Assembly (NCBI RefSeq): GCF_900129325.1
Contig: NZ_FQUP01000003.1
Location: 186,001 to 250,000, forward strand
DNA length: 64,000 bases
Origin: Kaistia soli DSM 19436
GTDB lineage: Bacteria; Pseudomonadota; Alphaproteobacteria; Rhizobiales; Kaistiaceae
Reading direction: 5' to 3'
Shown in pieces: positions 42,251-64,000 of this stretch. The position numbers and the translations under genes were made by a program. The notes under the pieces are model-generated. The model was given only the letters and a program-made list of their open reading frames with translations, had not been told where the DNA came from and did no database searches. Position 1 is the first letter of the stretch. Each line of letters starts with the position of its first letter.

Positions 42251-42264
42251 ACCGAATCGGTTGG

Positions 42265-44109: not shown

Positions 44110-44118
44110 TTGCATACA
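44110..44118. promoter_or_regulatory. TTGCATACA site before the PPC/ECF operon
   Basis: Exactly the same nine bases as at 38032-38040. It lies about 29-37 bases before the ATG at 44147, in the gap between the divergent hydrolase and PPC genes. ACTGCAT at 44122-44128 is a second half-site one helical turn away. Confidence 0.5.
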
Positions 44119-44146
44119 GAAACTGCATCTGCGTGGACATGAGATC

Positions 44147-44584
44147 ATGACAGAATCCGCCGTGCCGGCCCCTCTCGTCAGCGGCGGACGCTTCTTCGCC
44201 ATGCGACTGAAGCCTGGCGAGGATGTCCTCGACACGCTCCAGGCCTTCGTCGCGGCGAACGACCTGAAAGCTGTCGGCATCGTCACCAGCGTCGGCAGCC
44301 TGACGCATGCAATGATCCGCTACGCGGCCCGTCCGGTGGGCGCACTCCGCGAAGGTTTGTTCGAGATCGTCTCGCTCATTGGCACGATCGAGCCTACCGG
44401 CTGCCATGTTCACATCTCCTGCTCGGACGAGAACGGCGACATGTTCGGTGGCCACATGCTGTCCGGGTGCCTTGTGCGCACGACTTGCGAAGTGGTGCTC
44501 GTCGATCTGACCGACATGGCTTTCGGTCGCGAGTATTGCCCCCTCTCGACGTGGGATGAACTCGTCATCTCGCCACGGTCCTGA
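44147..44584 (+). CDS. PPC/DUF296 domain protein
   Basis: Protein of 145 residues from the ATG at 44147 (an earlier in-frame ATG at 44081 would include the putative operator). It is the stand-alone PPC fold (RFFAMRLKPGEDVLDTLQAF, GIVTSVGSLTHAMIRYA) with the metal-binding histidine set GCHVHISCSDENGDMFGGHML. Archaeal and bacterial members bind zinc as trimers and their role is unclear. It directly precedes the ECF transporter genes by 19 bases, so it probably helps to handle the same ligand. Confidence 0.85.
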   Translation: MTESAVPAPLVSGGRFFAMRLKPGEDVLDTLQAFVAANDLKAVGIVTSVGSLTHAMIRYAARPVGALREGLFEIVSLIGTIEPTGCHVHISCSDENGDMFGGHMLSGCLVRTTCEVVLVDLTDMAFGREYCPLSTWDELVISPRS

Positions 44585-44603
44585 CAACAGAGCTGAGGAA
44601 CGG

Positions 44604-45179: not shown

Positions 45180-45183
45180 GACG

Positions 45184-45978: not shown

Positions 45979-46817
45979 AAGTCCACGACCTCGCCTTTCG
46001 CTTCCCGCGCGCGGAGAAGCTGGTCCTCGACGGCGTCTCTTTCTCGGTCGAGCGCGGCGAGCGGGTCGCGATCCTATCGCCGAACGCCGGTGGCAAGACG
46101 ACGCTAGCCCGATGGCTGGCCGGACTGCTTCCCGACGGGGTCCTGAAGGCCGAACGCGGCCATGTCAGCATGGACGGCAAGGATTGGACGGAGTGGCATA
46201 TCGCCGAGCGATCGTCAGCGATCCAATATGTCGGGCAGGTCCCCTCGCAGCAGATGACCGGCTGCGCCTTCACGGTGTTCGAGGAGATCGCCTTCGGACC
46301 GTGCAATCTGGCTCTGCCGGAGGCCGAGGTTCGGGCCCGGGTCGACGAGGCGATGACGGTCTGCAACCTGCGCCATCTCGTTGATCGCGATCCCTTCACC
46401 CTCTCGGGCGGCGAGCAACAGAGGCTTTCGATCGCGGCAGCCCTCGCCATGAAGCCGCAAGTGCTCATCCTCGACGAGCCGACCTCCAATCTCGATCCAG
46501 AATCACGCGACGATCTCCTTGCACAGCTGGAACTCTTGCCGGGTGAACTGACCATCGTCGTGCTTGAGGTGGCGCTTCGGCCATCTTTGGCTCTCGCCGA
46601 CCGCTTCCTTCTGCTCGACGAAGGTCGGATTGCCGTCGATGGTCCGGCAATTGATGTGCTGACACACCCACGCTGCATCGAAACGCTCGGCATGACGGCG
46701 ATCACGGAGGCAGGCCGGCGTATTCAGAATGCCGGCGGCTGGGCGGAGGGGCGGCCTCTGCCCCTGACACTCGCCGACGCGCTCCAGACCCTGCAGGTGC
46801 CCGATGCTGTCCGTTGA
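45966..46817 (+). CDS. ECF transporter ATPase with degenerate ATP site and intact signature
   Basis: ATPase of 283 residues, GTG start at 45966 within the end of the T gene. Its signature LSGGEQQR (146-153) and Walker B LILDEP (Asp170, Glu171) are normal. The Walker A reads SPNAGGKT with Ser38 for the usual first Gly, and the H-loop His is missing (VVLEVALRP where a THD motif belongs). Thus its own nucleotide site looks impaired while it can still complete the partner's site. Partner overlaps by 14 bases at the 3' end. Confidence 0.88.
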   Translation: MALLEVHDLAFRFPRAEKLVLDGVSFSVERGERVAILSPNAGGKTTLARWLAGLLPDGVLKAERGHVSMDGKDWTEWHIAERSSAIQYVGQVPSQQMTGCAFTVFEEIAFGPCNLALPEAEVRARVDEAMTVCNLRHLVDRDPFTLSGGEQQRLSIAAALAMKPQVLILDEPTSNLDPESRDDLLAQLELLPGELTIVVLEVALRPSLALADRFLLLDEGRIAVDGPAIDVLTHPRCIETLGMTAITEAGRRIQNAGGWAEGRPLPLTLADALQTLQVPDAVR

Positions 46818-47607
46818 CGACGTTACCTTTTCCTATGTCGCGGGTGCGCCTGTCCTGGCCGACATCGACTTCAAAGTCGCGTCCGGCGAAGTGGTGGCAA
46901 TCGTAGGGCGCAACGGCGCCGGCAAAAGCACGCTGCTGCGCCTCCTGAACGGGCTTTTCCAACCCGAGAGCGGCGCGATCATCGTTGCCGGCAACGCGAC
47001 TTCTGATACGCCGGTGCACATTCTCGCCCGATCGATCGGCACGGTGTTCCAGGCGCCGGAACAGCAGATCTTCAATCCACGGGTCCGCGATGAAATCGCC
47101 TTCGGCCCCAAGCAGCTTGGCCTTACGGGCGCGACGCTCGAGGCGCGCATCGCCGAGGTACTGGAGCGCATCGGTCTCGCGTCAGAAGCGGACGCGCATC
47201 CGCTTGACCTCGACCAGTCTGCCCGGCGCATGGTTGCGATCGGCTCCGTGCTGGCGATGCAGCCGCCGATCCTCTTGCTCGACGAGGCCCAGCGGGGACT
47301 CGACAAAACGGCGATCACGCGGCTTTCCACGATCATCGAGACTGAAAAAGCCCGCGGCACGGCCGTGATCCTCGTCTGTCACGATATGGATTTCGTGGCC
47401 CGGCAGGCGGACCGCGTGCTGGGGCTCGCCCGTGGCCGGCTCGCGGCCAATCTGCCGACAAAAGCATTCTTCACCGACAAGGCTCTGACCGCGTCGATCG
47501 GAGTCGAGGTGCCGGATGTGCTCGCGCTTTCGGAAGCGCTCGCGCTGCCTCCGACTTTGACACCGGCGGCATTCGCCGACGCCTATATGGCGCGTGAGCG
47601 GACTTGA
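46804..47607 (+). CDS. ECF transporter ATPase with intact ATP site and degenerate signature
   Basis: ATPase of 267 residues. Walker A GRNGAGKS (35-42), Q-loop FQAPEQQIF, Walker B LLLDEAQRGLD and H-loop His193 (VCHDMD) are intact. The ABC signature is lost: in place of LSGGQ the aligned residues are DLDQS (135-139, in HPLDLDQSARRMVAIG). Paired with the preceding ATPase this gives one consensus composite site and one doubly degenerate site. Last gene of the ECF operon. Confidence 0.88.
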   Translation: MLSVDDVTFSYVAGAPVLADIDFKVASGEVVAIVGRNGAGKSTLLRLLNGLFQPESGAIIVAGNATSDTPVHILARSIGTVFQAPEQQIFNPRVRDEIAFGPKQLGLTGATLEARIAEVLERIGLASEADAHPLDLDQSARRMVAIGSVLAMQPPILLLDEAQRGLDKTAITRLSTIIETEKARGTAVILVCHDMDFVARQADRVLGLARGRLAANLPTKAFFTDKALTASIGVEVPDVLALSEALALPPTLTPAAFADAYMARERT

Positions 47608-47771: not shown

Positions 47772-49250
47772 ATGGTGAAAGACGGCAAGCAGCATCTCGC
47801 AAGCCTCCGCGACAGCCGCACGATCTATATCGACGGGCGCAAGGTTGCCGATGTGACCACAGACCCGGCCTTCGCGAATGCCGTCGCGACGTCGGCCGCA
47901 TTTTATGACTATCAGGCCGCGCCGGAAAACATCGAAGCGATGACCTTTCGCTCGCCGACTTCAGGCGACCAGGTCAGCCGCGCATGGCATCTGCCGCGCA
48001 ATCATCGCGAACTCGTGGAGCGGCGGGAGGCGCTGACGCGCTGGGCCGAGATGACCTGCGGCATGGTGGGCCGCTCGCCGGATCACGTCGCTTCAACGCT
48101 CGCCGGCTTCCGCATGGGCTTGCCAGCATTCCGCGACTACGATCCGGCCCGGGCCAGCGCGGTCGAATCCTATTTCGACTATGCGCGCGACAACGACCTC
48201 TATCTCTCTTACGTCATCATCAACCCGCAGTCCGACAAGGCGAAGTCGGCGAGCGGCCAGCCTGACGCGCATCTCGTCGCGTCGATCGTCGACGAGGATG
48301 CCGCCGGCATCACGATCCGCGGCGCCAAGATGCTAGCAACGAGTGGCATCATGGCCAATGAGATCATGGTCTCGGGCTTCAACGCGCTGCAGGCCGGCGA
48401 CGAGGCCTATGCCTTCACGGCGGTACTGCCCATCGGTGCCAAGGGCCTGACGCTGATGTCGCGGCGCAGCTACGAGCAGGCTGCAACGTCTGAATTCGAT
48501 TATCCGCTGTCGACCCGCTTCGACGAGAACGACGCGGTGGTCTATTTCGATGACGTGAAGATCCCCTGGGATCACGTCTTCGTCTACAAGGACCTCAAGA
48601 TGGCCCAGGCGCAGTGGCACGACAGCCGCGCGCATGTGATGCAGAACTACCAGTGCATGATCCGGCTGATGGTGAAGCTGAAATTCCTGCTCGGCATCAC
48701 ACGCAAGATCGCCGAGACCAACAACATCATCAACTATCCGCAGGTTCGCGAGACGCTTGGCCTCGTCGCGGCCAAGGTCAACAATATCGAGGCGCTGGTC
48801 GTCGCCATGGAGGCGACAGGCGAGCACTTCAACGGCTATTATGTGCCGAACCGCACGATCCTCTGCACCGCGCAGGTCATCGCGCAGACGACCTATCCCG
48901 AGGTGGTCGAAGCGCTGCGCACGCTTTCGGGCGGCGGCATGATCATGGTGCCCTCCTCCTTTGCTGACTTCGAGACGCCGGAGACCCGCGCGATCATCGA
49001 AAAGACGCAGCGTTCCATCGTCACCAACTCCGAAGGGCGCGTGAAGCTGATGAAGCTCGCCTGGGATGCCGTCGGCTCGGAGTTCGGCTCGCGCCATCTA
49101 CAGTATGAGATGTTCTATTCAGGCCCGACTTTCGTCACGCGCGGCAACTCGTTCCGCTTCTTCGACTGGGATGGCGTGAAAGGCACGGTCGACGGTTTCA
49201 TGGAAACCTATGGGCTACCGGCGCCGGGCCTTCGCTCGGCCGCAGAGTGA
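47772..49250 (+). CDS. FADH2-dependent monooxygenase, HpaB family
   Basis: Large component of a two-component aromatic hydroxylase, 492 residues. HpaB features are seen across the chain: an N-terminal helical region with PRNHRELVERREALTRWAE, the FAD segment (MLATSGIMANEIMVSG), VYFDDVKIPWDHVFVYKD and a C-terminal bundle with GGGMIMVPSSFADFETPE. It uses reduced FAD from a partner, surely the flavin reductase at 52877 in the same operon. HpaB relatives hydroxylate phenols, chlorophenols and hydroxypyridines. Substrate here is unknown but the amide hydrolases that follow suggest a nitrogen ring. Confidence 0.93.
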   Translation: MVKDGKQHLASLRDSRTIYIDGRKVADVTTDPAFANAVATSAAFYDYQAAPENIEAMTFRSPTSGDQVSRAWHLPRNHRELVERREALTRWAEMTCGMVGRSPDHVASTLAGFRMGLPAFRDYDPARASAVESYFDYARDNDLYLSYVIINPQSDKAKSASGQPDAHLVASIVDEDAAGITIRGAKMLATSGIMANEIMVSGFNALQAGDEAYAFTAVLPIGAKGLTLMSRRSYEQAATSEFDYPLSTRFDENDAVVYFDDVKIPWDHVFVYKDLKMAQAQWHDSRAHVMQNYQCMIRLMVKLKFLLGITRKIAETNNIINYPQVRETLGLVAAKVNNIEALVVAMEATGEHFNGYYVPNRTILCTAQVIAQTTYPEVVEALRTLSGGGMIMVPSSFADFETPETRAIIEKTQRSIVTNSEGRVKLMKLAWDAVGSEFGSRHLQYEMFYSGPTFVTRGNSFRFFDWDGVKGTVDGFMETYGLPAPGLRSAAE

Positions 49251-49255
49251 CGGCG

Positions 49256-50458
49256 ATGGATGTGCCCGAACGGCCTTCCCGCGAGGCGATCGAACGCCTC
49301 GCCTTTGTCGATCACGGCCGTGACAGCCTTTTGCTGACCGGAGAGGGACCGCTGGCGGGGCTCTCCTTCGCGGTGAAGGATCTGATCGACGTTGCGGGCT
49401 ATCGATCGGCCTGGGGCAATCCCGACCGGCTCCGCGATGCTCCTCCGGCCATAGCAACCGCGCCTTCGGTGCTGGTCCCGCTGATGGCCGGCGCGCGCAT
49501 GGCCGGAAAGACCGCGACGGACGAGCTGGCCTGCGGCATGTTCGGGATGAACCCGCATTTCGGCATCCCGATCAACCCAGCGGCTCCGGATCGCGTGCCG
49601 GGCGGGTCGTCGAGCGGCTCGGCCTCTGCCGTCGCGGCGGGCCTCGTCGATTTCGCCCTCGGCTCCGATACCGGCGGCTCGATTCGTGCGCCGGCGAGTT
49701 TCTGTGGCCTTTACGGGCTCCGGACGACTTTTGGTCGCGTCTCGGTCGCCGGCGTGATGCCAATGGCGCCGAGCTTCGATACGGTCGGATGGCTCACGCG
49801 CAACATCGCGATGATGAAGCGCGTCAGTGCCTGTTATTTCGGTCCGATCGGGCCGGCGGCGGCGCCGCGGCTGATGGTCGCCCGTGATGCGTTCGATATC
49901 CCGGAGCACGGGATCGGCGCTGCGCTGCTGCCGATCGCGAAGAGCCTCGGCGCCTCGACCGAGATCACGCTTTACGAGGAAGGGGTCGAGCACTGGCTGG
50001 AAACCTTCCGCCCGCTGCAACTGCATGACCTGTATGCAACGCTCGGCGCCTTCGCGACCGAGCCCGGACGACGGCTGTCGCAGGCTGTTGCCGAGCGGTT
50101 CGCGCTCGCCTCGACGGTCAAAGCTGAGGACGTCGCCAAAGCGATACCGAATCGCGAGGCCTTGACCGACCGGCTCGTCGCCCTGCTCGGCGACGACGGC
50201 ATCATCGTCCTGCCGACGGTGCATGACCTCCCGCCCCGGCGCGATGCGCCTGTCACGGCTCAGATCGCCTTTCGCGAGAAGACTCTCGCCCTCACGGCCG
50301 TCGCCAGCCTCACTCGGTTACCGCAACTCGCAATCCCCGCGACGACGTTCGAAGGTTGTCCGGTCGGCCTGTCGCTGATCGGCGGCCCTCGCAGCGAGAA
50401 GCGCCTGATCGCCTTTGCCGACACTTTGGGTGACCTGACGCGCAAGGCTGCGGCATGA
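49256..50458 (+). CDS. Amidase-signature amidohydrolase (AtzE/GatA-like)
   Basis: Protein of 400 residues. Triad Lys41 (FAVKDLID), cis-Ser around 118-120 (GGSSSGSA) and Ser142 (SDTGGSIRAPAS). Shorter than the amidase at 36433 and more like the 1-carboxybiuret/indole-acetamide group with the N-terminal AVKDLIDVAGYRSAWGNPD. Start: ATG at 49256; a GTG at 49247 overlapping the HpaB stop is equally possible. Coupled by four bases to the deacetylase gene. Confidence 0.9.
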   Translation: MDVPERPSREAIERLAFVDHGRDSLLLTGEGPLAGLSFAVKDLIDVAGYRSAWGNPDRLRDAPPAIATAPSVLVPLMAGARMAGKTATDELACGMFGMNPHFGIPINPAAPDRVPGGSSSGSASAVAAGLVDFALGSDTGGSIRAPASFCGLYGLRTTFGRVSVAGVMPMAPSFDTVGWLTRNIAMMKRVSACYFGPIGPAAAPRLMVARDAFDIPEHGIGAALLPIAKSLGASTEITLYEEGVEHWLETFRPLQLHDLYATLGAFATEPGRRLSQAVAERFALASTVKAEDVAKAIPNREALTDRLVALLGDDGIIVLPTVHDLPPRRDAPVTAQIAFREKTLALTAVASLTRLPQLAIPATTFEGCPVGLSLIGGPRSEKRLIAFADTLGDLTRKAAA

Positions 50459-51378
50459 CCCCAGTCGCCAATGGTGTCCGCGACTTCGTGGGCTATGGTC
50501 GGACACCGCCGGACCCACGTTGGCCGGGCGGAGCACGGCTGGCGCTCGTTGTCGTGCTGAATGTCGAAGAAGGCGCGGAGCCATCGATCCCGGATGGCGA
50601 CGAGGCCTCCGAGGCCGCACTGACCGATGCCATTCCGGGTGAAGTGAGCGCCGGGCGCCGTGACTTCGTAGCAGAGACGCTGTTCGAATACGGATCACGT
50701 GTCGGCTTCTGGCGGCTCACCGAGCTTTTCGCCGAGCGTGGCATGCCGCTGACGATCAATGCCTGCGCGGCCGCGCTACGCCGCAACGGCGAGATCGCCG
50801 CGGCCATCCGCGATGGCGGGCTGGATCTCTGCTGCCATGGCGACCGCTTTGTCCGCTACTACCGCATGGACGCGGCCGAGGAGCGCGCCGCGATCGCCGC
50901 CGCCTATCTTGGCATCGTCGAGACAATCGGCCGGCCGCCGCTGGGGTGGCAGAGCCGCTATTCGTCCAGCGAGGCGACACGGGCGCTGCTGGTCGAGCAT
51001 GGCGGGTTTCTGTACGACTCCGACTCCTATGCCGACGACCTGCCCTATTGGGTAGCGGTTGGCGACGCGCCGCATCTCGTCGTCCCGCACTCCTTCACGC
51101 ATAACGACAACCGGCTTGCCACGGCCAAACTCGGGACGGCCGAGGACTTCTACGATCATCTCGCAAGCGCATTTCGCGTCCTGCATGCCGAGAGCGCGCG
51201 GCGGCCGCGCATGATGACGGTAAGCTTGCACAGCCGCATTTCGGGCCAACCTTCGCGCTTTGAGGCGATCAGGCGCTTTCTCGATCTGGTCTCTGCCCAT
51301 GACGACGTCTGGTGCGCCGGCCGCTCGGAGATCGCACGGCACTGGATGGCGACGCATCCCGCGGAGAGTGTGCCATGA
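50455..51378 (+). CDS. Polysaccharide-deacetylase-fold amidohydrolase (PuuE-like), first copy
   Basis: Protein of 307 residues from the NodB-fold group that includes PuuE allantoinase and cyclic imidases, not true polysaccharide deacetylases: RDFVGYGRTPPDPRWPGGARLALVVVLNVEEG (split over residues 9-40) is the PuuE start, followed by SRVGFWRLTELFAERGMPLTIN and DLCCHGDRF and, late, TVSLHSRISGQPSRFEAI. In known metal-free PuuE enzymes the active site uses similar His and Glu. Likely opens a cyclic ureide or imide. Overlaps the genes on both sides by four bases. Confidence 0.88.
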   Translation: MTPVANGVRDFVGYGRTPPDPRWPGGARLALVVVLNVEEGAEPSIPDGDEASEAALTDAIPGEVSAGRRDFVAETLFEYGSRVGFWRLTELFAERGMPLTINACAAALRRNGEIAAAIRDGGLDLCCHGDRFVRYYRMDAAEERAAIAAAYLGIVETIGRPPLGWQSRYSSSEATRALLVEHGGFLYDSDSYADDLPYWVAVGDAPHLVVPHSFTHNDNRLATAKLGTAEDFYDHLASAFRVLHAESARRPRMMTVSLHSRISGQPSRFEAIRRFLDLVSAHDDVWCAGRSEIARHWMATHPAESVP

Positions 51379-52880
51379 GCCGCACCGTCATCACGGGCGG
51401 GCTCGTCGCCGATCTTGCGTCAGGAACGGCAACCGCACGCGACCTGCTTGTCGAGAACGGCCGTCTTGCGGCGATCGCAGAGCCCGGCGGCCTCGACGCC
51501 GGCGATGCCGCCCGTCATGACGCTTCCGAGCGTTTGATCCTGCCGGGCTTCGTCAACAGTCACACCCATGGCCATGCCAATCTCGCCAAAGGCGTCGCCG
51601 ACCGCTGGACACTTGAAGCCTCGCTCACCAACGGGCCGTGGATGGGCGGCGCGCGCGATGTCGAGACGATCTATCTCTCGACGCTGATCGGCGCGCTCGA
51701 CATGCTTTCGAAGGGCTGCACGGCCTGTTTCGACCTCGTCTATGAGTTCCCGCGCCCAACGGTCGGGGGCTTCATGGCGGTGGCGCGGGCCTATGCGGAC
51801 GCCGGCGTCAAGGCGGTGCTGGCGCCGATGGTCGCCGACAAGACACTGTTCACGGCGATTCCCGGTCTAGCCGCCTCCCTCCCCCAAGACCTGCGCGAAA
51901 GCGTCGGCCGTTTCGCACTGGACGGCGGAGATGCCACGATCGAGGCTGTCGAGGCCATCATCGCCGAGCGGGCAAACCTGCCGGCCGGCATAGCGCTGGC
52001 TTTGGCGCCGACGATTCCGCATCACTGCTCGGAGCACTTCCTGCTGCGCCACGGGGAGCTTGCCGAGCAGCATGGTCTCCCGGTCCATATGCATGTCGCT
52101 GAGTCTCGGCTGCAAGCGAGTGTGGCGCGCGATCTCTGGGGTCAGTCGCCCGTCGCCTATCTCGCCGAGCGCGGCGTGCTCGGCCCGCATTTCATCGCGG
52201 CGCACGCCGTCTGGCTCGACGCTGCCGATCTTGACCTTCTTGCCGCGCACCGCTGCAGGATCGCTCACATTCCGGCCTCCAACTTCCGCCTCGGCGCTGG
52301 CATCGCGCATGTGCGGCCGATGCTGGAGCGCGGCATCTGCGTCGGACTCGCGACCGATGGCGCAAACTCCTCGGATGCCCTTTCAATGCCACAGGCGATC
52401 CGCCTCGCCTCCTATGCGTCGCGCATATTCGACGCTCCGCGAGAGGATTGGCTTGGCGCTGGCGAGACCCTTCGCCTCGCGACCGAAGGCGGCGCCGATC
52501 TCCTTGGCCTGCCGCGCGCCGGCAGGATCGAGGTGGGGGCGGCAGCCGATCTCGCCTTCTTCGATCTCGGCCATATCGACTTCCTGCCCCTCATCGACCC
52601 GCTCAACCAGGTCGTGACCGCCGCAGATTCCGGCTCAATTGCCGACGTGATGGTCGACGGAGACCTCGTGATCCGCGACCGCCGCCCGACGCGGATCGAC
52701 CGGATGGACCTTCGCGCCCGGGTCGGCGAAGCCGTTGCCCGGCTCGATCCGAGCCTCACCGAAGCGCGGACGCTCGCCGGACGGCTCGAACCACACGTGG
52801 TCGCCTTTGCGCGCAGCCAGCGCCACAAGCCGCTTCCCATCAATCGTTTCCTGTCCGTCGAAGGGAAAGACCGATCATGA
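51375..52880 (+). CDS. Metal-dependent amidohydrolase (TrzA/AtzB/cytosine-deaminase-like)
   Basis: Protein of 501 residues. The zinc site is HTHGH (His63, His65), then HMHVAES and FIAAHAVWL and TDGAN with the catalytic Asp. This is the subtype III amidohydrolase set of guanine deaminase, TrzA chlorohydrolase and AtzB. It would remove an amino or halide group from a nitrogen ring, or hydrolyse a cyclic amidine. Starts at 51375, overlapping the previous stop; a longer frame is inside the previous gene. Confidence 0.9.
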   Translation: MSRTVITGGLVADLASGTATARDLLVENGRLAAIAEPGGLDAGDAARHDASERLILPGFVNSHTHGHANLAKGVADRWTLEASLTNGPWMGGARDVETIYLSTLIGALDMLSKGCTACFDLVYEFPRPTVGGFMAVARAYADAGVKAVLAPMVADKTLFTAIPGLAASLPQDLRESVGRFALDGGDATIEAVEAIIAERANLPAGIALALAPTIPHHCSEHFLLRHGELAEQHGLPVHMHVAESRLQASVARDLWGQSPVAYLAERGVLGPHFIAAHAVWLDAADLDLLAAHRCRIAHIPASNFRLGAGIAHVRPMLERGICVGLATDGANSSDALSMPQAIRLASYASRIFDAPREDWLGAGETLRLATEGGADLLGLPRAGRIEVGAAADLAFFDLGHIDFLPLIDPLNQVVTAADSGSIADVMVDGDLVIRDRRPTRIDRMDLRARVGEAVARLDPSLTEARTLAGRLEPHVVAFARSQRHKPLPINRFLSVEGKDRS

Positions 52881-53371
52881 CCAACCCTGTCGATCCGACG
52901 GACTTTCGCCGCGCCTGCGCCTTGTTCCCGACCGGCGTTGCGGTCGTGACGACGCATCACGGCGACATCTTTGCCGGGATGACGATCAACTCTTTCGCAT
53001 CGGTCTCTCTCCAGCCCTCGCTGGTGCTGTGGAGCATCCGCGAGAACGCCCGCTCGCGCGCCATTTTCGAGGGTGCCGGACGTTTCGCGGTCAACGTTCT
53101 CTCCAGCACCCAGATGGATGAGGCGCGACATTTCTCGAAGCACACACTGGAGGCCTTCGACGGCGAACCGATGGTGATCTCGGAGCGCGGCCTTCCGCTG
53201 CTGCCCGGCGCGCTGGTTCATCTCGAATGTGAGACGCGGGCGATCCATGATGGCGGCGATCATCGCATCATGATCGGCGAAGTCGTCGCGCTTTCGGCGC
53301 GTGAGGGCGATCCGCTGATCTTCTTTAACGGCCGTCTTTCGGCCGGCTTCCATGCGTTCGAAAAGAGCTGA
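52877..53371 (+). CDS. Flavin reductase, HpaC/RutF-like
   Basis: NAD(P)H:flavin oxidoreductase of 164 residues. Flavin-reductase domain features: FRRACALFPTGVAVVTT, AGMTINSFASVSLQPSLVLWSI, FAVNVLSSTQ and the late GDHRIMIGEV. Supplies reduced flavin to the HpaB-type monooxygenase in this operon and possibly to the LLM enzyme at 33213, which has no reductase of its own nearby. Overlaps the amidohydrolase gene by four bases. Confidence 0.93.
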   Translation: MTNPVDPTDFRRACALFPTGVAVVTTHHGDIFAGMTINSFASVSLQPSLVLWSIRENARSRAIFEGAGRFAVNVLSSTQMDEARHFSKHTLEAFDGEPMVISERGLPLLPGALVHLECETRAIHDGGDHRIMIGEVVALSAREGDPLIFFNGRLSAGFHAFEKS

Positions 53372-53376
53372 TCTTC

Positions 53377-54114
53377 ATGAGCATAGCCCGTATCGGCCAC
53401 ATCACCCCCTCCTCCAACACGCAACTGGAGCCGCTGACCTATGCGATGAACCGATCGCTCGACGGACGGCTCGCGCATCACTTTTCGCGCATCCGCGTCA
53501 AGCATCTGGCGCTGGAGGCCGCCTCCGACGCACAATTCCGCCTGGAGACGATGCTGGCCGGCGCCCGGCTCCTCGCGGATGCGCCGCTTCAGGGCATCGT
53601 CTGGAACGGCACGTCGGCAAGCTGGCGCGGGCTCGAAAACGACGTCGCGCTCTGCGAGGCGATCACGCGCGAGACCGGACTTCCCGCTTCGACCTCGACC
53701 CTCGCCTTCTACCGCGCCTTCCGGACATTCGGCTGGAAAACCGTCGCGCTCGCCGTCCCCTATACCGAGGACATCACAGAGGACATCGCCAAGGAATATA
53801 CGCGCCAGGGCTTCCCTGTGGTCGGAGCCGCGTCGCTCGGCATCCGCGAGAATATCGATATCGGCGCGTCGCCCGCGGACGACATCCGCAAGGTGCTGCG
53901 GTCCGCTGCAACGAGCAAACCCGACTGCATCGCGGTTGTCTGCACCAACTTCAACGCCACCGAACTCGTCCAGGAGATGGAGGCCGAACTCGGCATCCCG
54001 ATCGTCGATTCGATCGCCGTGACATTCTGGGAGGCCTGCCGGCTTGCCGGAATGTCGACGCCCGTCCTGGGCTGGGGCAAGCTCCTTGCATCAGACACGG
54101 CGGCTTCGGCCTAG
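53377..54114 (+). CDS. Asp/Glu racemase superfamily enzyme, single-Cys AMDase-like
   Basis: Protein of 245 residues related to maleate isomerase and arylmalonate decarboxylase. It starts with IGHITPSSNTQLEPLT. The first catalytic position has Gly78 (WNGTSASW) where racemases and maleate isomerase have Cys, while the second keeps Cys189 (AVVCTNFNAT). Gly plus late Cys is the arrangement of arylmalonate decarboxylase (Gly74/Cys188), so decarboxylation of a malonate-type intermediate is a reasonable prediction. Malonates arise naturally from barbiturate- or pyrimidine-like ring opening. Starts six bases after the flavin reductase. Confidence 0.87.
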   Translation: MSIARIGHITPSSNTQLEPLTYAMNRSLDGRLAHHFSRIRVKHLALEAASDAQFRLETMLAGARLLADAPLQGIVWNGTSASWRGLENDVALCEAITRETGLPASTSTLAFYRAFRTFGWKTVALAVPYTEDITEDIAKEYTRQGFPVVGAASLGIRENIDIGASPADDIRKVLRSAATSKPDCIAVVCTNFNATELVQEMEAELGIPIVDSIAVTFWEACRLAGMSTPVLGWGKLLASDTAASA

Positions 54115-54143: not shown

Positions 54144-55040
54144 ATGGCCAAGGAAATCTTCGTTGCCTATGGCGTCGACGTCGACGCGGTCGCCGGATGG
54201 CTGGGTTCCTATGGAGGCGAGGATAGCCCGTGCGACATTTCCCGCGGCGTTTTTGCCGGAGAAGTGGGCACGCCGCGCCTTTTGAAGCTGTTCGATCGCT
54301 TCGGCATCAAGACGACCTGGTTCATCCCTGGCCATTCGATCGAGACTTTTCCCGACGAGATGGCGGCTGTCGCGGCGGCCGGCCATGAGATCGGCATGCA
54401 TGGCTACAGCCATGAGAACCCGCTGATGATGACGCGCGACCAGGAGGCCGCCGTCCTCGACAAGTCGATCGCGCTGATCGAGAATCTGCAGGGGCGCAAG
54501 CCCTCCGGCTATGTCGCGCCGTGGTGGGAGTTCTCGAACACCACGATCGAGATGCTGATCGAACGCGGCATCATCTACGATCACTCGCTGATGCATAACG
54601 ACTTCTTCCCCTACTACGCCCGCACCGGGGAAAGCTGGTCGAAGATCGATTATGGCAAGCCGGCAGAGACCTGGATGACGCCGATGAACCGCGGCACCGA
54701 GACGCCGCTCGTCGAGATTCCGGCGTCCTGGTATATCGATGACCTGCCGCCGATGATGTTCATGAAGGCGGCGCCAAACAGCCACGGCTTTGTCAATCCG
54801 CGCGATATCGAGGAGCTGTGGCGCGACCAGTTCGACTGGGTCTATCGCGAATACGACTATGCCGTGTTCACGATCACCATCCATCCGGATGTCTCCGGCC
54901 GGCCGCAAGTGCTGATGATGCATGAGCGGCTGTTCGGCCATATGGCCAAGCACCCTGGCGTCAAGTTTGTGACCTTCGAGGACATCGCCAAGGACTTCCT
55001 GAAGCGGCATCCGAAGGGCACGCCCGGTCCGAAGCCGTAG
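54144..55040 (+). CDS. Polysaccharide-deacetylase-fold amidohydrolase (PuuE-like), second copy
   Basis: Protein of 298 residues. The NodB metal site is fuller than in the first copy: GVDVDA at residue 10, HGYSHE near 90 and VAPWWEFSN as the substrate wall, then [15 protein letters not shown] with a late His. Resembles the cyclic-imide or peptidoglycan-like deacetylases of the PuuE/HpPgdA branch. AAGAGGGAAAG precedes the ATG at 54144. Ends the HpaB operon. Two different members in one operon suggest two separate ring or N-acyl hydrolyses. Confidence 0.88.
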
Positions 55041-56984: not shown

Positions 56985-57072
56985 ATTCCCGAACAGAAGT
57001 CCGGTGCTTTGCGCCGCGCGTATGTCCGCCTGGCGAAAGCCTGATGGCGCGGACCGGTATGGAGTGCGTCGC

Positions 57073-58521
57073 ATGACGATGAGCAGCCTCGACGAGTTGG
57101 CGAAGCGCGTTCGCTTCGAACTAGACTGCGTTGCCTATCCGGCGCGCGAGTGGGTCGTGCCCCGCCAGCACGACGGCAAGCCGGTGCTCGACGTCCTCAT
57201 CGTCGGTGGCGGCCAGAACGGCCTTGCCCTCGCCTTCCGCCTGCTGCGGGAGCGCGTCACCAATGTCCGCGTGCTTGACCGAAGCCCGAGCGGTCAGTCG
57301 GGGCCTTGGATCACCTATGCTCGCATGCAGACACTGCGGACGCCGAAGCATGTGTCAGGGCCGGAACTTGGACTGCCGGGTCTCTCGATCCGCGCATGGT
57401 ACGAAGCGAAGTTCGGTGCCGCGGCCTGGGCCGGCGTCAACAAGATCCCGCGCGCCGACTGGCATGACTATCTCGGCTGGCTGCAGTCGACCGTCGGCAT
57501 CGACGTCACCAACGACGCGGCCGTGATCGACATCGAGCCGCTTGCCGACGATCTCTTCGACGTCCGCGCAATAATCGCCGGCAAGGCGGAACGGCTGCTG
57601 GCGCGCCACGTCGTGCTTGCGACGGGCATCGAGGGCGCGGGTAAATGGCAGGTGCCCACTGTCGTCAAGCAGGCCCTGCCCAGAGAGCGATATGCGCACA
57701 CGGCCGAGCCGATCGATTTCGCCGCCCTGAACGGCAAGCGCGTCGGCGTCATAGGCGCCGGGGCCTCGGCCTTCGACAATGCGGCGATGGCGCTGGAAGC
57801 CGGCGCGAGCGCGGTCGACGTTTTTGCGCGGCGGCGTTCGCTGCCGAAGGTCAATCCAAACCGCTATATCGAGAATGCGGGGTATATTCGCCATTTCGCC
57901 GATCTCGACGACGAGGCGAAGTGGCGTTTCATGCGGCGGTTCTTCGCGCTCAACCAGCCGCCGCCCCAGGATACGTTTGAGCGCTGTGCGCGCTTCGACG
58001 CTTTCGATCTCCATCTCGGCAGTCCGATTGAAAGCGTCACCTTCGAGGATGGACATGTGCGGCTCGGCACGCCTGGGGGCGTGTTTGACTATGATTTCCT
58101 GATCGTGGGTACGGGTTTCGTCGTCGATCTGGCGTTGAGGCCGGAACTGGCCCGCTTTGCGCACAAGATCGCTGTCTGGTCTGATCGCTATACGCCTCCC
58201 AAAGGCGCGGAGAGCTCGATGCTCGGCGCCTATCCTTACCTGTCGGGTGACTTCCAGTTCACGGAGAAGGCATCCGGCGCGGCGCCCTATCTGTCGCGGC
58301 TCTACTGCCATTCCTTCGGGGCCATGATGAGCCTTGGTGCCACCGCCGGCATCTCCCAGCTCAAATTCTCAACCGAGCGCATCGCCCTTGGCATCACACG
58401 CCAGCTTTTTCGCGACGACGCCGAGGCCTTCATTGCCGGTCTTGACCGCTATGACGAGGTCGAGCTCGACATTTCCGCCTTCGAAGCGCGCCGCGCCGCC
58501 CGCGCCTCGCGAGTTGCCTGA
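57073..58521 (+). CDS. FAD-dependent monooxygenase-like oxidoreductase (FMO-type)
   Basis: Flavoprotein of 482 residues. FAD-site VLIVGGGQNGLALAFRLL near residue 40 and a second Rossmann site RVGVIGAGASAFDNAAMALEAGAS near 215 for NADPH, with ATG(I/T)-type middle motif VVLATGIEG. This is the pattern of N-hydroxylating or Baeyer-Villiger-like monooxygenases, though the exact FxGxxxHxxxW motif is not seen. Start ATG at 57073; another ATG lies two codons later. First gene of a run that includes the ArcS-motif protein. Confidence 0.85.
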   Translation: MTMSSLDELAKRVRFELDCVAYPAREWVVPRQHDGKPVLDVLIVGGGQNGLALAFRLLRERVTNVRVLDRSPSGQSGPWITYARMQTLRTPKHVSGPELGLPGLSIRAWYEAKFGAAAWAGVNKIPRADWHDYLGWLQSTVGIDVTNDAAVIDIEPLADDLFDVRAIIAGKAERLLARHVVLATGIEGAGKWQVPTVVKQALPRERYAHTAEPIDFAALNGKRVGVIGAGASAFDNAAMALEAGASAVDVFARRRSLPKVNPNRYIENAGYIRHFADLDDEAKWRFMRRFFALNQPPPQDTFERCARFDAFDLHLGSPIESVTFEDGHVRLGTPGGVFDYDFLIVGTGFVVDLALRPELARFAHKIAVWSDRYTPPKGAESSMLGAYPYLSGDFQFTEKASGAAPYLSRLYCHSFGAMMSLGATAGISQLKFSTERIALGITRQLFRDDAEAFIAGLDRYDEVELDISAFEARRAARASRVA

Positions 58522-58539: not shown

Positions 58540-59565
58540 ATGGTCACTGTCACCGATCGCGCCCAGCGCATCACCGAATCCGCGGACAAGATCGAAAGCC
58601 CGTTCGTCCTCGATCCGACGCTTTGCCTCTACAGCCCGCAGGACAATGTCGACAGCCTCACACATCCGCGCATTGCGGCGTGGCTCGATTTCATCCGCAA
58701 CGACTACGAACCGAAGCTGCCAGCCGCGAAGCGCAAGGTTTTGCTCTTCATGCCCTGCACGAAGACAAAGCCCTATCCCTTTTCATCTGAACATAAAGCG
58801 ATCAATCAGCGCCTTGCCGACACCGGCTTCCGGCCGACCGCGCAGCTCGACCTGCCGCAGGAATTGCAGGCCCGGCTCGAGCCGGAATTCTCACAGGACG
58901 TACTCAATCTCTCGCCGCTGATGGACGATGCCGGCACGCTTGTGCACCGCATGGTGATCTCCGAGCCGATGGGCGTCGTGCCCTATGAACATATCATCGA
59001 CTATCCGGGCGGCGCCTCGCCGGCCACGGCCTATGACGACCCGGGCCTGTTCGAGAAGCGCGGCAATGCGGTGTCGCCCTGGCGCAGCGACTCGACAGCC
59101 ATTGCCGTTTCTAAGACACGCTGGAAATGGGGCGACGAGGAGCGGCGTCACTATGCGCTGATGCACAACGCCATGGCCGAGGCGGTCGCCGCCGTCGTCG
59201 GCCGGATCGGGCATCGCTATGACGACATCGTCTCCTGGGTGGCGCCCGGCCTGACCCATCGCAGCTTCGTCATCGGCAAAGCCGAGCGCGCGGCGAACAA
59301 CGTTCCCGCCACCCGCAAGGTCGGTTCCGGCCGCGTGGACCTTGTTGGTGCCAATGACTACCTTGGCCCCGACGCCGCCATCGTCTGCCTGCCGACGCTC
59401 GACCAGTGCAAGGATGCGATCGACCGCCTCGCCGCGCGGCTCGGCATCGACACGATCCAGGCGACCGGCATCTATGCCCGCGGCGGCGCCAACGCTACGC
59501 CGCTTGCCCTCCCCGAACTTCTTGACGTGCTTGTCGCGCGGCTGCGCGACCAGAAGGAAAAGTGA
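58540..59565 (+). CDS. Protein with archaeosine-synthase (ArcS) core motif, DUF5591-like
   Basis: Protein of 341 residues. Residues 67-90 read KVLLFMPCTKTKPYPFSSEH, matching exactly the PC-x3-KPY-x2-S-x2-H pattern I recall for the ArcS core domain: Pro72, Cys73, Lys77-Pro-Tyr79, Ser82, His85. In archaea ArcS adds lysine to the nitrile of preQ0 in tRNA. Here no TGT-like or PUA domain is apparent and the gene sits in a catabolic run. A later region (VSWVAPGLTHRSFVIGKAERAANN) is unassigned. It may form or break a C-N bond at a nitrile or amidine. The activity is unknown; family placement is from the motif, not a search. Confidence 0.7.
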   Translation: MVTVTDRAQRITESADKIESPFVLDPTLCLYSPQDNVDSLTHPRIAAWLDFIRNDYEPKLPAAKRKVLLFMPCTKTKPYPFSSEHKAINQRLADTGFRPTAQLDLPQELQARLEPEFSQDVLNLSPLMDDAGTLVHRMVISEPMGVVPYEHIIDYPGGASPATAYDDPGLFEKRGNAVSPWRSDSTAIAVSKTRWKWGDEERRHYALMHNAMAEAVAAVVGRIGHRYDDIVSWVAPGLTHRSFVIGKAERAANNVPATRKVGSGRVDLVGANDYLGPDAAIVCLPTLDQCKDAIDRLAARLGIDTIQATGIYARGGANATPLALPELLDVLVARLRDQKEK

Positions 59566-59567
59566 GA

Positions 59568-60542
59568 ATGACGCTTCTGAAACTGACCATCGGCGCCAGC
59601 GACAGCGACCGCACCCGGCCGATCGCCAACGGCGAGGTCAAGATTGCCGGCGTCGAGCCGGATGTGACACTGATGGGCGTGCAGGCGCTGTTCAACAAGC
59701 AGCTCGGCTCGCACCATTTCGACGCCTGCGAATTTCCCCTCGCGACCTATCTGCGCACGCTGGAGCGGCCAGACCGGCCCTATCTCGCCGTGCCGATCTT
59801 TCCCTCGCGCCATTTCCGCTTTTCCAGCGTCTTCATCAACAAGGCGAGCGGCATCCGGACGCCGGCTGACATGGCAGGAAAGCGGATCGGGCTCATGGTG
59901 TTCGACATGGCCGCAGCCGTCTGGCAACGCGGCTTCTTCGAGGAGCACTACGGCCTCGACCGGACGGCGCCGATTTACGTCACCGGGGGGCTCGAAGCGC
60001 CCCGGACGGGCGATGAACATCCGCAGGTCTATCCTGACAAATTCAAGGTGGAGCGCACCGACAGATCTTTGGCGCAGATGCTGGCGAGCGGCGAGATCGA
60101 CGCGCTTTATACGGCTCGCGCGCCAAGCACCTGGCCATCCGAGACCGTTGGCCGGCTGTTCGAGGATGCCAAAACCGCTGAGCTCGACTATTTCCGCAAG
60201 ACCGGCATCTTCCCGCCGATGCATATCCTCGCGGTCAAGCGGCCGATCGCCGAAGCAAATCCTGGCCTGACAAAGGCGCTGTTCGACGCTTTCGCCGAGG
60301 CACAGACAGTGGCGCGGGCGAAGCTCTTCGACCAGGTGGCGCTTTCGACCATGTTGCCCTGGGCGCTTGAATCGCTGCTTGAGGCCGAGCGTGAGCTCGG
60401 GAAAGATTATTGGCCGGTTGGGTTTGCCAAGAACCGTGCCATGCTGGAGGTCATCATCCGCTACCTCACCGAGGACGGCCTGATTTCGACGGCCTTCAAG
60501 CCGGAAGACCTTTTCGAAGGCGCGGATATTCTCGCCACCTGA
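59568..60542 (+). CDS. 4,5-dihydroxyphthalate decarboxylase-like protein (SBP fold, cytoplasmic)
   Basis: Protein of 324 residues from the ATG at 59568 (AAGGA lies eight bases upstream; a GTG overlapping the previous stop is also possible). No signal peptide. Sequence LTIGASDSDRTRPIANGEVKI, FDACEFPLATYL and FPSRHFRFSSVFINKASGI follows the Pht5-type decarboxylases, a group with the periplasmic-binding fold used as an enzyme. It would decarboxylate an aromatic or heteroaromatic acid. Directly downstream of the ArcS-motif gene. Confidence 0.85.
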   Translation: MTLLKLTIGASDSDRTRPIANGEVKIAGVEPDVTLMGVQALFNKQLGSHHFDACEFPLATYLRTLERPDRPYLAVPIFPSRHFRFSSVFINKASGIRTPADMAGKRIGLMVFDMAAAVWQRGFFEEHYGLDRTAPIYVTGGLEAPRTGDEHPQVYPDKFKVERTDRSLAQMLASGEIDALYTARAPSTWPSETVGRLFEDAKTAELDYFRKTGIFPPMHILAVKRPIAEANPGLTKALFDAFAEAQTVARAKLFDQVALSTMLPWALESLLEAERELGKDYWPVGFAKNRAMLEVIIRYLTEDGLISTAFKPEDLFEGADILAT

Positions 60543-61628: not shown

Positions 61629-63008
61629 ATGGCCTATCGGGAAATGGACACGCAGGGCTGGCAGGTGCTGGACCGCGCCCATTATCTGCATCCCTTCACG
61701 GACCATGCGAGCCTGCGCCAGGGCGGAGCCCGCGTCGCCGTGCGCGGCGAGGGCATCTATGTCTGGGATACCGAAGGGACGCGCATCATCGACGGCCTTT
61801 CCGGGCTCGGCAATGTGAATATCGGCTATGGGCGGCGCGAGCTGGTCGAGGCCGCGGCTTCGCAGATGCTTGAGCTTTCCTATTGCCAGTCCTTCTTCAA
61901 GACGACGCATCGCTCGGCGGTCATGCTTGCCGAGAAGCTGACATCGATGCTGCCCGACAGCCTCAACCACGTCTTCTTTCAGTCGTCCGGCTCTGAGGCC
62001 AACGAGACCGCCATTCGTCTGGTGCGGCACTATTGGGACCTTGCCGGACGGCCGCAGAAGCGGATGATCATCGGGCGTGAGCTTGCCTATCACGGCTCGA
62101 CGCACATGGCGGCCAGCCTCTCCGGCATCCCGCCGATGCACAGCGCCGGCGGCGACATCCCGATGCCGAGCGTCACCCATATCAAGACGGCCTATCAGTA
62201 TCGCAACGGCTTCGGCATGGACCCGGCTGAGTTCGGCGTGCTTGCCGCGAGCTGGCTCGAGGACAAGATCCTCGAGCTTGGGCCGGACAATGTCGCGGCC
62301 TTCATCGCCGAGCCCGCACAGAGCGCCGGCGGCGCGCTCTGTCCGCCCGAGACCTACTGGCCCGAGATCCAGCGCATTTGCAGGAAATATGACGTTCTGC
62401 TCATCCTCGACGAGGTCGTGATGGGCTTCGGGCGCACCGGCCACTGGTTCGGCCATCGCCGCTACGGCATCGAGCCGGACATCCTGCAGCTTGGCAAGGC
62501 GATCACCTCCGGCTACCTGCCGCTCTCCGCGACGGTCATCTCCGACCGTATTGCCGATCTGCTGATCGACAAGGGCGGCGAATGGGCTCACGGCTACACC
62601 TATTCCGGTCATCCGACCTGCTGCGCCGTGGCACTCGAAAACATCCGCATCCTCGACGAGGAGAAGTTGGTCGAGAACGCCGGCGCGACGCTGGCCCCTT
62701 ATTTCAAGGCTAAGCTCGACTCATTCATCGATCATCCGTTGATCGGCGACGTGCGCTCGGTCGGGCTGATGGGCGGGCTGGAGATCGTGCAGGACAAGGC
62801 AACGCGCGAGGCGTTTCCCTACGAGGCCCATATTGGCGACTATTGCGCCGCCGAGGGCCTGAAGCGCGGCCTCGCCTTCCGCGCCAATGGCGACACGATG
62901 AGCCTAATGCCGCCTCTGGTCACGACGATCGAACAATTCGACACGATCTTCGACATCGCCCGTGAGGCGCTGGATGCCACCGCGAAAGAGTTCGGTGTCA
63001 CGGCATGA
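61629..63008 (+). CDS. Class III PLP-dependent aminotransferase
   Basis: Aminotransferase of 459 residues (omega-amino acid:pyruvate type). The PLP-binding Lys is in LQLGKAITSGYLPLSATVI; the cofactor pocket includes SSGSEANETAIRL and ILDEVVMGFGRTG. Likely moves the amino group of an omega-amine or beta-alanine-like product to pyruvate. GAGGAG lies nine bases before the ATG. Its stop overlaps the next start (ATGA). Confidence 0.93.
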   Translation: MAYREMDTQGWQVLDRAHYLHPFTDHASLRQGGARVAVRGEGIYVWDTEGTRIIDGLSGLGNVNIGYGRRELVEAAASQMLELSYCQSFFKTTHRSAVMLAEKLTSMLPDSLNHVFFQSSGSEANETAIRLVRHYWDLAGRPQKRMIIGRELAYHGSTHMAASLSGIPPMHSAGGDIPMPSVTHIKTAYQYRNGFGMDPAEFGVLAASWLEDKILELGPDNVAAFIAEPAQSAGGALCPPETYWPEIQRICRKYDVLLILDEVVMGFGRTGHWFGHRRYGIEPDILQLGKAITSGYLPLSATVISDRIADLLIDKGGEWAHGYTYSGHPTCCAVALENIRILDEEKLVENAGATLAPYFKAKLDSFIDHPLIGDVRSVGLMGGLEIVQDKATREAFPYEAHIGDYCAAEGLKRGLAFRANGDTMSLMPPLVTTIEQFDTIFDIAREALDATAKEFGVTA

Positions 63009-64000
63009 CGAAACCGACCGGCCTCGTCTGGCATGAATTGCTGATGTGGCACGACACGCATGCACTGGCGGGATTCATGCAATCCGGCCGCGGCGTGATC
63101 GAGCCCGACGAGCCATCGGAAAGCGCGGCTGGCAAGCGACGGATCAAGAACCTGCTCGATGTTGCAGGACTGACCGAGCAACTCCTTCTCATCAAGCCCC
63201 GGCCTGCGCGCGAGGAAGAGCTCGGCCGCGTTCATCACGTCGATTACATTGCCCGGTTGAAGGCGATGAGCGATGCGGATGGCGGCGACGCCGCGCTCGG
63301 CGATCCGGTCGGCGTGACGCCGTTCGGCCCTGGCGGCTACGAGATCGCGGCGCTGGCAGCAGGCGGCGTTCTCGAAGCGGTCGACGCGATCATGGAGGGC
63401 CGCGTCGCCAATGCGTACGCCCTGCTCCGTCCGCCCGGCCATCATGCAGAAGCGGCCCGTGGCTTCGGTTTCTGCATCTTCAACCACGGCGCCCTGGCCG
63501 CCCGCCACGCGCAACTGGTGCATGGTCTCCAGCGTGTCGCGATCCTTGATTGGGATGTCCATCACGGCAATGGCGCGGAACGGATCTTCTGGACCGATCC
63601 GAGCGTCCTGACGATCTCGATCCACCAGGACAACTGCTATCCGCCCCAATCAGGGCTGATCGATGCGATAGGCGGCGGCCCCGGTGCCGGCTATAATGTC
63701 AACGTTCCGCTGCCGCCCGGCTGCGGCAGCGGCGCATACCTTGCTGCCATGGATCGCGTCATCCTGCCGGCCCTCCGTGCTTTTTCGCCGGAGATGATCA
63801 TCATCGCCTCTGGCCTCGACGCCGGCGCCTATGATCCGCAGGCACGCATGATGCTCGGCGGCAGCGCCTTCGCCGCCATGACAAAGCGCGTCATGAACGT
63901 CGCCGCCGATTGCTGCGACGGACGTCTTTTGCTGAACCACGAGGGCGGCTATCACCGGCCCTCGGTGCCGTTCCTCGGCCTTGCCATCATCGAGGCGCTG
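63005..64000 (+). CDS. Histone-deacetylase-fold amidohydrolase (AcuC/acetylpolyamine type), cut by window
   Basis: First 332 codons, with the window ending inside the gene. Zinc-site motifs: RPPGHHAE, DWDVHHGNGAERIFW, and the later SGLDAGAYDPQARM with the Asp ligand. Members remove acetyl groups from polyamines or act on acylated amines. Next to a class III aminotransferase it could free the amine that the aminotransferase then uses. Coupled by overlap; the C-terminus, about 30-40 residues, is beyond the edge. Confidence 0.92.
   Translation, partial: MTKPTGLVWHELLMWHDTHALAGFMQSGRGVIEPDEPSESAAGKRRIKNLLDVAGLTEQLLLIKPRPAREEELGRVHHVDYIARLKAMSDADGGDAALGDPVGVTPFGPGGYEIAALAAGGVLEAVDAIMEGRVANAYALLRPPGHHAEAARGFGFCIFNHGALAARHAQLVHGLQRVAILDWDVHHGNGAERIFWTDPSVLTISIHQDNCYPPQSGLIDAIGGGPGAGYNVNVPLPPGCGSGAYLAAMDRVILPALRAFSPEMIIIASGLDAGAYDPQARMMLGGSAFAAMTKRVMNVAADCCDGRLLLNHEGGYHRPSVPFLGLAIIEAL

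What the first reader, a model, noticed from the sequence alone, without database searches (positions are those of the whole stretch)
58540..59565. Bacterial catabolic-operon protein with an exact ArcS core motif
The sequence shows PC-x3-KPY-x2-S-x2-H without mismatch at residues 72-85 of a 341-residue protein. I know this pattern as the mark of the archaeosine synthase core, which joins an amine to the nitrile of preQ0. Here it is set between a flavoprotein monooxygenase and a dihydroxyphthalate-decarboxylase-like gene, with no tRNA-modification genes near. The fold may have been reused for small-molecule C-N chemistry (amidine, nitrile or deazapurine side chain).
Basis: partly seen in the sequence, partly recalled or inferred. 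Interest (0 to 1): 0.85.

Follow-up and report, generated by a model that had tools for sequence, protein, structure and literature searches.

The report
Archaeosine-synthase core in bacterial catabolism
Some soil alphaproteobacteria carry a stand-alone relative of the catalytic core of an archaeal tRNA-modifying enzyme inside a large gene cluster that looks built to break down purine-like, possibly queuosine-type, molecules.

The parts
58540..59565 (+). ArcS-core (DUF5591) homologue, 341 aa; motif 1 PC-x3-KPY-x2-S-x2-H at aa 72-85, motif 2 (S141..P148..Y165) at aa 140-166; family-specific insertions around aa 97-133 and 172-198
57070..58521 (+). FMO-type flavoprotein monooxygenase (ORF open from 56887; start uncertain), directly upstream in 12 of 14 genome-contig loci
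   Evidence: no PDB sequence match at E<=1e-5
59562..60542 (+). 4,5-dihydroxyphthalate decarboxylase homologue; directly downstream in 13 of 14 loci
   Evidence: 9jp7 E 8.6e-58; PF09084 23 bits
60546..61523 (+). AraC-type regulator, nearest NCBIfam model FeaR (169.4 bits, below cut-off 199)
61629..63008 (+). class III aminotransferase (NCBIfam subfamily PRK07480, 639.4 bits, cut-off 510)
63005..64000 (+). histone-deacetylase-fold hydrolase (runs past the window end)
   Evidence: PF00850 282.5 bits
55848..56840 (+). CobW-type GTPase
54144..55040 (+). polysaccharide-deacetylase/PuuE-fold hydrolase (TIGR03212 79.9 bits)
53377..54114 (+). arylmalonate-decarboxylase/Asp-Glu-racemase family protein
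52862..53371 (+). flavin reductase, likely partner of the HpaB-type oxygenase
   Evidence: PF01613 127.4 bits
51312..52880 (+). ATZ/TRZ-type amidohydrolase (start uncertain)
50455..51378 (+). PuuE-like (allantoinase-like) hydrolase; TIGR03212 330.7 bits, below the 424.6 cut-off
49247..50458 (+). amidase-signature hydrolase
47772..49250 (+). HpaB-type flavin-dependent oxygenase (two-component type)
46804..47607 (+). ECF transporter ATPase
   Evidence: TIGR04521 211.7 bits, best model but below its cut-off of 330
45972..46817 (+). ECF transporter ATPase (start uncertain)
   Evidence: TIGR04520 175.1 bits, best model but below its cut-off of 315
45184..45978 (+). ECF T component (CbiQ-type)
   Evidence: PF02361 73.6 bits
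44604..45179 (+). ECF S component, nearest NCBIfam model the CD3073 family (127.3 bits, below cut-off 180)
44081..44584 (+). PCC-domain protein beside the ECF genes
   Evidence: PF03479 94.9 bits
38057..42250 (+). ABC importer with NMT1/THI5-like binding protein (38057-39067), ATPase (39149-39973), a third ORF taken as the permease by position and not given to a family library (39927-41459), and a class II aldolase (41447-42250)

Best explanation
The 341-residue protein is a stand-alone, rebuilt ArcS core: same fold and invariant residues as the catalytic domain of archaeosine synthase, without the TGT-like and PUA parts that handle tRNA. It works as an enzyme on free purine-like substrates in a catabolic cluster. 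Most likely mechanism (inferred): Cys73 of the PCxxxKPY motif attacks a nitrile carbon (as in 7-cyano-7-deazaguanine) or a related C=N carbon on position 7 of a deazaguanine, giving a thioimide; water (or an amine) resolves it, so the side chain becomes an amide or acid, which the neighbouring dihydroxyphthalate-decarboxylase homologue can strip off. Upstream, the FMO would oxidise the aminomethyl side chain; the deaminase, HpaB-type oxygenase, PuuE-like and amidase enzymes would then dismantle the bicyclic ring. Shown by computation: homology, fold, invariant residues, conserved cluster. Inferred: deazaguanine substrate, thioimide step, order of steps.
For: Homology and fold. Ten residues (P72 C73 K77 P78 Y79 S82 H85 S141 P148 Y165) are identical in 20 bacterial rows (19 distinct genes), seven archaeal/viral rows and the AF0587 stretch. 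Cluster over 14 genome-contig loci: FMO adjacent in 12, decarboxylase homologue in 13, 8-oxoguanine-deaminase homologue in view in 12. 8-oxoguanine deaminase over its curated cut-off for the L028 copy (618.3 vs 532); PuuE-like 330.7 bits; decarboxylase homologue. Independent contexts: G719, at the end of a same-strand run with PuuE-UraD, allantoicase, ureidoglycolate lyase and xanthine permease, near an AtzD-type enzyme, a molybdenum hydroxylase and a urate-oxidase-family protein; L022, after a cytidine-deaminase-fold gene. Of 14 genus members, all 8 carriers have HpaB and decarboxylase homologues and an ECF-S match; of 6 non-carriers 0, 0 and 1 do. Uptake and nucleoside-hydrolase genes in the genus. 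Chemistry precedent: ArcS acts on preQ0; QueF and QueF-L attack its nitrile through a cysteine thioimide.
Against: T. kodakarensis ArcS does not act on free preQ0 base, only on nucleoside or nucleotide (PMC11298593 section 7). The ECF and nucleoside-hydrolase genes are not a fixed part: none of the 15 named stretches (14 genome-contig loci of 9.6-21 kb and the 31-kb plasmid stretch L028) has an ECF S, ECF T, PCC or this nucleoside hydrolase at E<=1e-8 (stretches of the window's own genus are cut before they reach these genes); G037, G719 and G790 have no ECF-S match; in G008 the ECF operon lies on another contig, in G012 it exists without the ArcS-like gene, and the only S match of G006 is on a separate 7.2-kb contig. 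S components are below the CD3073 cut-off. The best PDB match of the own-genome deaminase is named both 8-oxoguanine deaminase and hydroxydechloroatrazine ethylaminohydrolase (7ww2). No riboswitch in the three sources searched. G719 and G790 lack the HpaB homologue and have only 30-31% identical decarboxylase relatives elsewhere. Members are mostly close relatives, so conserved order is partly shared ancestry.
Confidence: 0.37

Rival explanations
1. The ArcS core was reused for ordinary purine breakdown (oxidised guanine, urate, ureides), as a base-binding hydrolase or deaminase; no 7-deazaguanine is involved.
For: G719 places it in a plain ureide pathway run; the 8-oxoguanine deaminase and PuuE-like genes of the main cluster; the cytidine-deaminase-fold neighbour in L022; the queuosine-type transporter link is limited to one genus in what I saw.
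Against: G719 already encodes a urate-oxidase-family protein, PuuE-UraD and allantoicase, leaving no obvious gap; the residues shared with ArcS are fully kept.
Confidence: 0.27
2. It is an amide/amidine-forming enzyme on a small molecule: it joins an amine to a nitrile or related carbon, in a pathway that need not concern purines.
For: ArcS itself transfers lysine to preQ0 (abstract); class III aminotransferase and amidase-type genes nearby.
Against: The neighbours are dominated by hydrolases, oxygenases and uptake systems, which suggests breakdown rather than assembly.
Confidence: 0.15
3. It is a genuine archaeosine-type tRNA or DNA modification enzyme acquired from an archaeon or virus.
For: Its only NCBIfam matches are the two ArcS models; stand-alone cores exist in viral contigs.
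Against: No TGT or PUA hit in Pfam at E<=1; about 30 bits against ArcS cut-offs of 440 and 600; no preQ0-synthesis or TGT family among the window neighbours scanned; co-occurrence with catabolic genes.
Confidence: 0.05
4. It is a non-catalytic substrate-binding or regulatory protein that kept the fold of the ArcS core.
For: The insertions and much of the region after residue 246 align to nothing in the archaeal/viral cores.
Against: All seven motif-1 residues and S141, P148, Y165 are invariant in the 20 rows, unusual for a dead enzyme.
Confidence: 0.08

Closest known systems
Archaeosine synthase ArcS (NF040592, NF053620), core domain DUF5591/PF17884
   Same: Core fold, PC-x3-KPY-x2-S-x2-H, second motif S..P..Y
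   Different: No TGT-like or PUA hit, large insertions, bacterial, catabolic neighbours; score far below equivalog cut-offs
AF0587 of Archaeoglobus fulgidus (PDB 2q07)
   Different: Archaeal, of unknown function by its PDB title; the window protein has an N-terminal extension and inserts
Stand-alone viral ArcS cores (L062, L068, L064, L065)
   Same: Short proteins with both motifs; three over the DUF5591 cut-off, L064 below it at 22.9 bits
   Different: About 184-206 residues, without the insertions, viral; functions unknown to me
QueF / QueF-L
   Same: Act on the preQ0 nitrile through a cysteine thioimide (passages of PMC5485725)
   Different: T-fold enzymes described there as non-homologous to ArcS; chemical analogy only
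C. difficile queK-qrtT-queL salvage operon
   Same: Nucleoside hydrolase next to an ECF S component, as at the 3' end of the cluster in the window's genus (operon from passages of PMC11477304)
   Different: Salvage, not breakdown; I did not search for a queL analogue; specificity of our S components and hydrolase is untested, and family models see the hydrolase as generic

Membership tests
DUF5591 (PF17884) | Score at or above the curated cut-off of 26 bits | tested here: met
   33.1 bits, aa 47-93 vs profile 3-45 of 150; all 20 rows of A4 match at E<=1
ArcS | Motif PC-x3-KPY-x2-S-x2-H (recalled as the ArcS signature; the primary paper was not held) | tested here: met
   Exact at aa 72-85; invariant in 20 of 20 rows, 19 distinct genes
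ArcS | Core-domain fold as in AF0587 | tested here: met
ArcS | TGT-like N-terminal half | tested here: not met
   341 aa, no TGT hit at E<=1; two archaeal TGT-DUF5591 proteins score 99.0 and 96.2 bits for TGT
ArcS | C-terminal PUA domain | tested here: not met
   No PUA hit in Pfam at E<=1; sequence test only
ArcS | NCBIfam equivalog cut-off (440 or 600 bits) | tested here: not met
   30.3 and 30.5 bits
ArcS | Lysine transfer to preQ0 in tRNA | not testable with these tools
   Needs biochemistry
ArcS | RaSEA partner gene | not tested
   No search for RaSEA was made
Uracil-DNA-glycosylase superfamily (fold of AF0587 by my recall of SCOP) | Fold match to UDG-type enzymes | tested here: inconclusive
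CD3073-family ECF S component (transporter next door) | NCBIfam NF045596 cut-off of 180 bits | tested here: not met
   127.3 bits (window copy; next model 24.4 bits) and 125.4 bits (second copy)
8-oxoguanine deaminase (PRK08203), cluster gene | NCBIfam cut-off of 532 bits | tested here: met
   618.3 bits for the L028 copy; the own-genome copy, 78% identical to it, was not scored against NCBIfam

The most novel reading that the evidence does not exclude
The cluster is a catabolic pathway for 7-deazaguanines (queuosine, queuine, preQ1, preQ0): taken up by dedicated importers (in the window's genus CD3073-type ECF systems), freed by a nucleoside hydrolase, stripped at position 7 by the FMO, ArcS-core and decarboxylase trio, then deaminated and ring-opened. 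The ArcS core, known for building archaeosine in tRNA, would be run here as a nitrile/thioimide hydrolase on small molecules.
Probability: 0.25. Interest if true: 0.9.

Novelty: new variant of a known kind. Interest (0 to 1): 0.7.

Why it matters
It takes the archaeosine-synthase core out of archaeal tRNA modification and into bacterial small-molecule catabolism, and gives a concrete gene set with which to ask how microbes destroy queuosine-type bases. My two searches on that question (judged from titles and opening lines of the 5 and 20 papers listed, of 6 and 56 holding the terms) showed no paper on such a pathway. If right, it also gives a small RNA-free ArcS-core enzyme in which to study nitrile-to-amidine or nitrile-to-amide chemistry.

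Tried and rejected

Alignment A2 had two rows on the wrong strand and was dropped; A3 and A4 replace it. A4 holds one gene twice (L006 and L013), so 20 rows are 19 genes. Four viral rows in A5 were found with the motif pattern, so motif 1 is invariant there by construction; S141, P148 and Y165 were not part of the pattern. The two archaeal records came from a segment search with E-value limit 10 (E 2e-3 and 3e-2, the two best of 7 records after the Rhizobium orthologue).

Full report
OBSERVATION. The ORF at 58540-59565 (+) encodes 341 residues, and PCTKTKPYPFSSEH stands at residues 72-85, the only exact PC-x3-KPY-x2-S-x2-H in six frames of the window. Residue composition predicts 1.2e-5 such hits in the window. 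The gene is under protein constraint: against the 92%-identical orthologue in L011, differences fall 18/11/107 on codon positions 1/2/3 over 340 codons. That this motif is the published ArcS signature is recalled; the primary paper was not held.

HOMOLOGY. Pfam gives one family, DUF5591, at 33.1 bits (cut-off 26), aligned over residues 47-93 only; each of the 20 rows of A4 matches that family at E<=1 and no other family appears. NCBIfam gives the two archaeosine synthase alpha models at about 30 bits, far under their cut-offs of 440 and 600. To test the rest of the domain I gathered comparison cores. A search of 7.3 Gb of plasmids with the 60-residue core segment (E-value limit 10, 7 records) found, after the Rhizobium orthologue, two haloarchaeal records with 'tRNA-guanine transglycosylase' genes at E 2e-3 and 3e-2; the two proteins I scanned have TGT plus DUF5591. 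A motif-pattern scan of viral contigs gave 14 stretches, of which four (L062, L064, L065, L068) have the motif in ORFs of 185-206 codons with a second shared motif; three are over the DUF5591 cut-off, L064 is under it at 22.9 bits. Profile-profile comparison of the bacterial family with these seven cores gives probability 98.4 and E 9.7e-15 over 134 columns, residues 38-246. Ten residues, seven of motif 1 and S141, P148, Y165 of motif 2, are identical in the 20 bacterial rows (19 distinct genes), the seven comparison cores and the AF0587 stretch; motif 1 in the four pattern-found viral rows is so by construction.

DISTRIBUTION. 9 of 61 relatives, 7 of 397 genomes of the order, 3 of 385 of the class and 1 of 398 of the phylum have it, each count including the query genome. 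The genome-contig scan gave 14 loci, 66-92% identical, all alphaproteobacterial by title, including Kaistia, Bradyrhizobium, Martelella, Parvibaculum and Ciceribacter; plasmids gave one, phages none. The window's own genus is probably Kaistia: contigs of G004 and G008 have the lengths of Kaistia records; this is inference. Patchy presence at high identity suggests transfer as a cassette; I did not build a tree.

NEIGHBOURHOOD. Across the 14 loci (match at >=40% identity over half the query) the FMO is next door in 12, the decarboxylase homologue in 13, and an 8-oxoguanine-deaminase homologue is in view in 12; the exceptions are L022 (none of the three), L015 (no adjacent FMO; a 42% relative further off) and L013 (a 9.6-kb contig with no deaminase in view). 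In this genome the cluster runs about 37 kb, from 38057 to about 11 kb past the window end. Among six further genomes fetched (G007, G013 and G008 are also among the 14 loci) it is kept nearly whole in four; G008 lacks the downstream ABC importer genes and has the 38057-47607 module on another contig, and G037 has a shorter version without the flavin reductase, second PuuE-fold, CobW, nucleoside hydrolase and ECF genes. Parts: HpaB-type oxygenase with flavin reductase, amidase, PuuE-like hydrolase (330.7 bits; cut-off 424.6), ATZ/TRZ amidohydrolase, arylmalonate-decarboxylase-family protein, second PuuE-fold hydrolase, CobW, FMO, ArcS core, decarboxylase homologue, regulator, aminotransferase, HDAC-fold hydrolase, aldehyde dehydrogenase, 8-oxoguanine deaminase (618.3 bits against cut-off 532 for the L028 copy; best PDB match of the own-genome copy 7ww2, named both 8-oxoguanine deaminase and hydroxydechloroatrazine ethylaminohydrolase), ABC importers, nucleoside hydrolase and ECF parts. 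The S components, one in the window at 44604-45179 and one about 10 kb past its end, match the CD3073-family model at 127.3 and 125.4 bits, below its cut-off of 180.

TWO OTHER CONTEXTS. In G719 the gene is the last of a same-strand run of ORFs that begins with PuuE-UraD, allantoicase, ureidoglycolate lyase and xanthine permease, near an AtzD-type ring-opening enzyme, a molybdenum hydroxylase and a urate-oxidase-family protein. In L022 (genome G790) it follows, on the same strand, a cytidine-deaminase-fold gene of unknown specificity (39.5 bits; no NCBIfam hit). Three unlike neighbourhoods, two of them clearly and one possibly about nucleobase breakdown, are the best evidence for a purine-like substrate.

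CO-OCCURRENCE. Of 14 genus members (own included) 8 carry the gene: all 8 have HpaB, decarboxylase and ECF-S matches; of 6 non-carriers 0, 0 and 1 do. These genomes are related, so no probability is attached. In G008 the decarboxylase match has one in-frame TGA; the only S match of G006 is on a small separate contig. Against a tight transporter link: the ECF operon occurs without the ArcS-like gene in G012, and none of the 15 named stretches holds an ECF S, ECF T, PCC or this nucleoside hydrolase, though stretches of the window's own genus end before reaching them.

MECHANISM. T. kodakarensis ArcS adds lysine to preQ0 in tRNA, slowly to the nucleoside, well to the 5'-monophosphate, and not to the free base (PMC11298593: abstract, passages and section 7). 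QueF and QueF-L attack the preQ0 nitrile with a cysteine to give a thioimide (PMC5485725 passages). For some phage ArcS homologues an amidohydrolase-like reaction has been suggested (PMC6884629 passages). By analogy C73, present in all 28 aligned rows, is the candidate nucleophile; hydrolysis would suit a catabolic setting and feed the decarboxylase homologue. Of two C. difficile QrtT components one carries preQ1 and the other preQ1, queuine and queuosine, and an operon there pairs a queuosine hydrolase with an S component (passages of PMC11130926, PMC11477304, PMC11570991); passages of PMC5372724 describe qrtT/queT as predicted preQ1 transporters. That CD3073 is one of the tested components is recall. 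On this I rest 0.25 for a 7-deazaguanine catabolic pathway and about 0.65 for a purine-like substrate of some kind.

NOVELTY. Text searches for DUF5591 (no paper), for ArcS with archaeosine and bacteria (8 papers) and for 7-deazaguanine breakdown listed nothing that reports a bacterial catabolic ArcS core or such a pathway, judged from titles and opening lines except for the papers named above; the library lacks most subscription papers. I file it as a new variant of a known kind: it is an ArcS-core homologue, membership in ArcS proper fails on domains and cut-offs, and a new function is likely but untested.

Noticed in passing
L062:7092-7643, L068:9549-10106, L064:3055-3672, L065:3162-3755: Stand-alone ArcS-core proteins of about 184-206 aa in viral contigs; two contigs have the lengths of Sulfolobus viruses STSV2 and STSV1 (76107 and 75294).
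   Followed up: partly
window 44081-47607: A complete ECF transporter (S, T, two ATPases) preceded by a PCC-domain gene; the S gene is hidden under a longer antisense ORF (44565-45461, minus).
   Followed up: yes
L075 (G012) and L076 (G008 contig 5): The PCC-ECF module occurs apart from the ArcS-like gene, in G012 near an asparaginase relative, a CobW-type gene and a PuuE-fold hydrolase; its own substrate could be a ring-hydrolysis product.
   Followed up: partly
L037, L038, L039: HpaB-type oxygenases at 53-56% identity on Caballeronia, Thioclava and Roseateles plasmids sit in another shared cluster: flavin reductase, cupin or DUF4437, amidase, DUF2848, branched-chain-type ABC importer.
   Followed up: no
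G008:C2:79541-80512: The decarboxylase homologue next to the ArcS-like gene has one in-frame TGA in this genome.
   Followed up: no
L034:4344-5364: A cyanuric-acid-amidohydrolase family gene (404.4 bits, cut-off 360) near the ArcS-like gene in G719.
   Followed up: no
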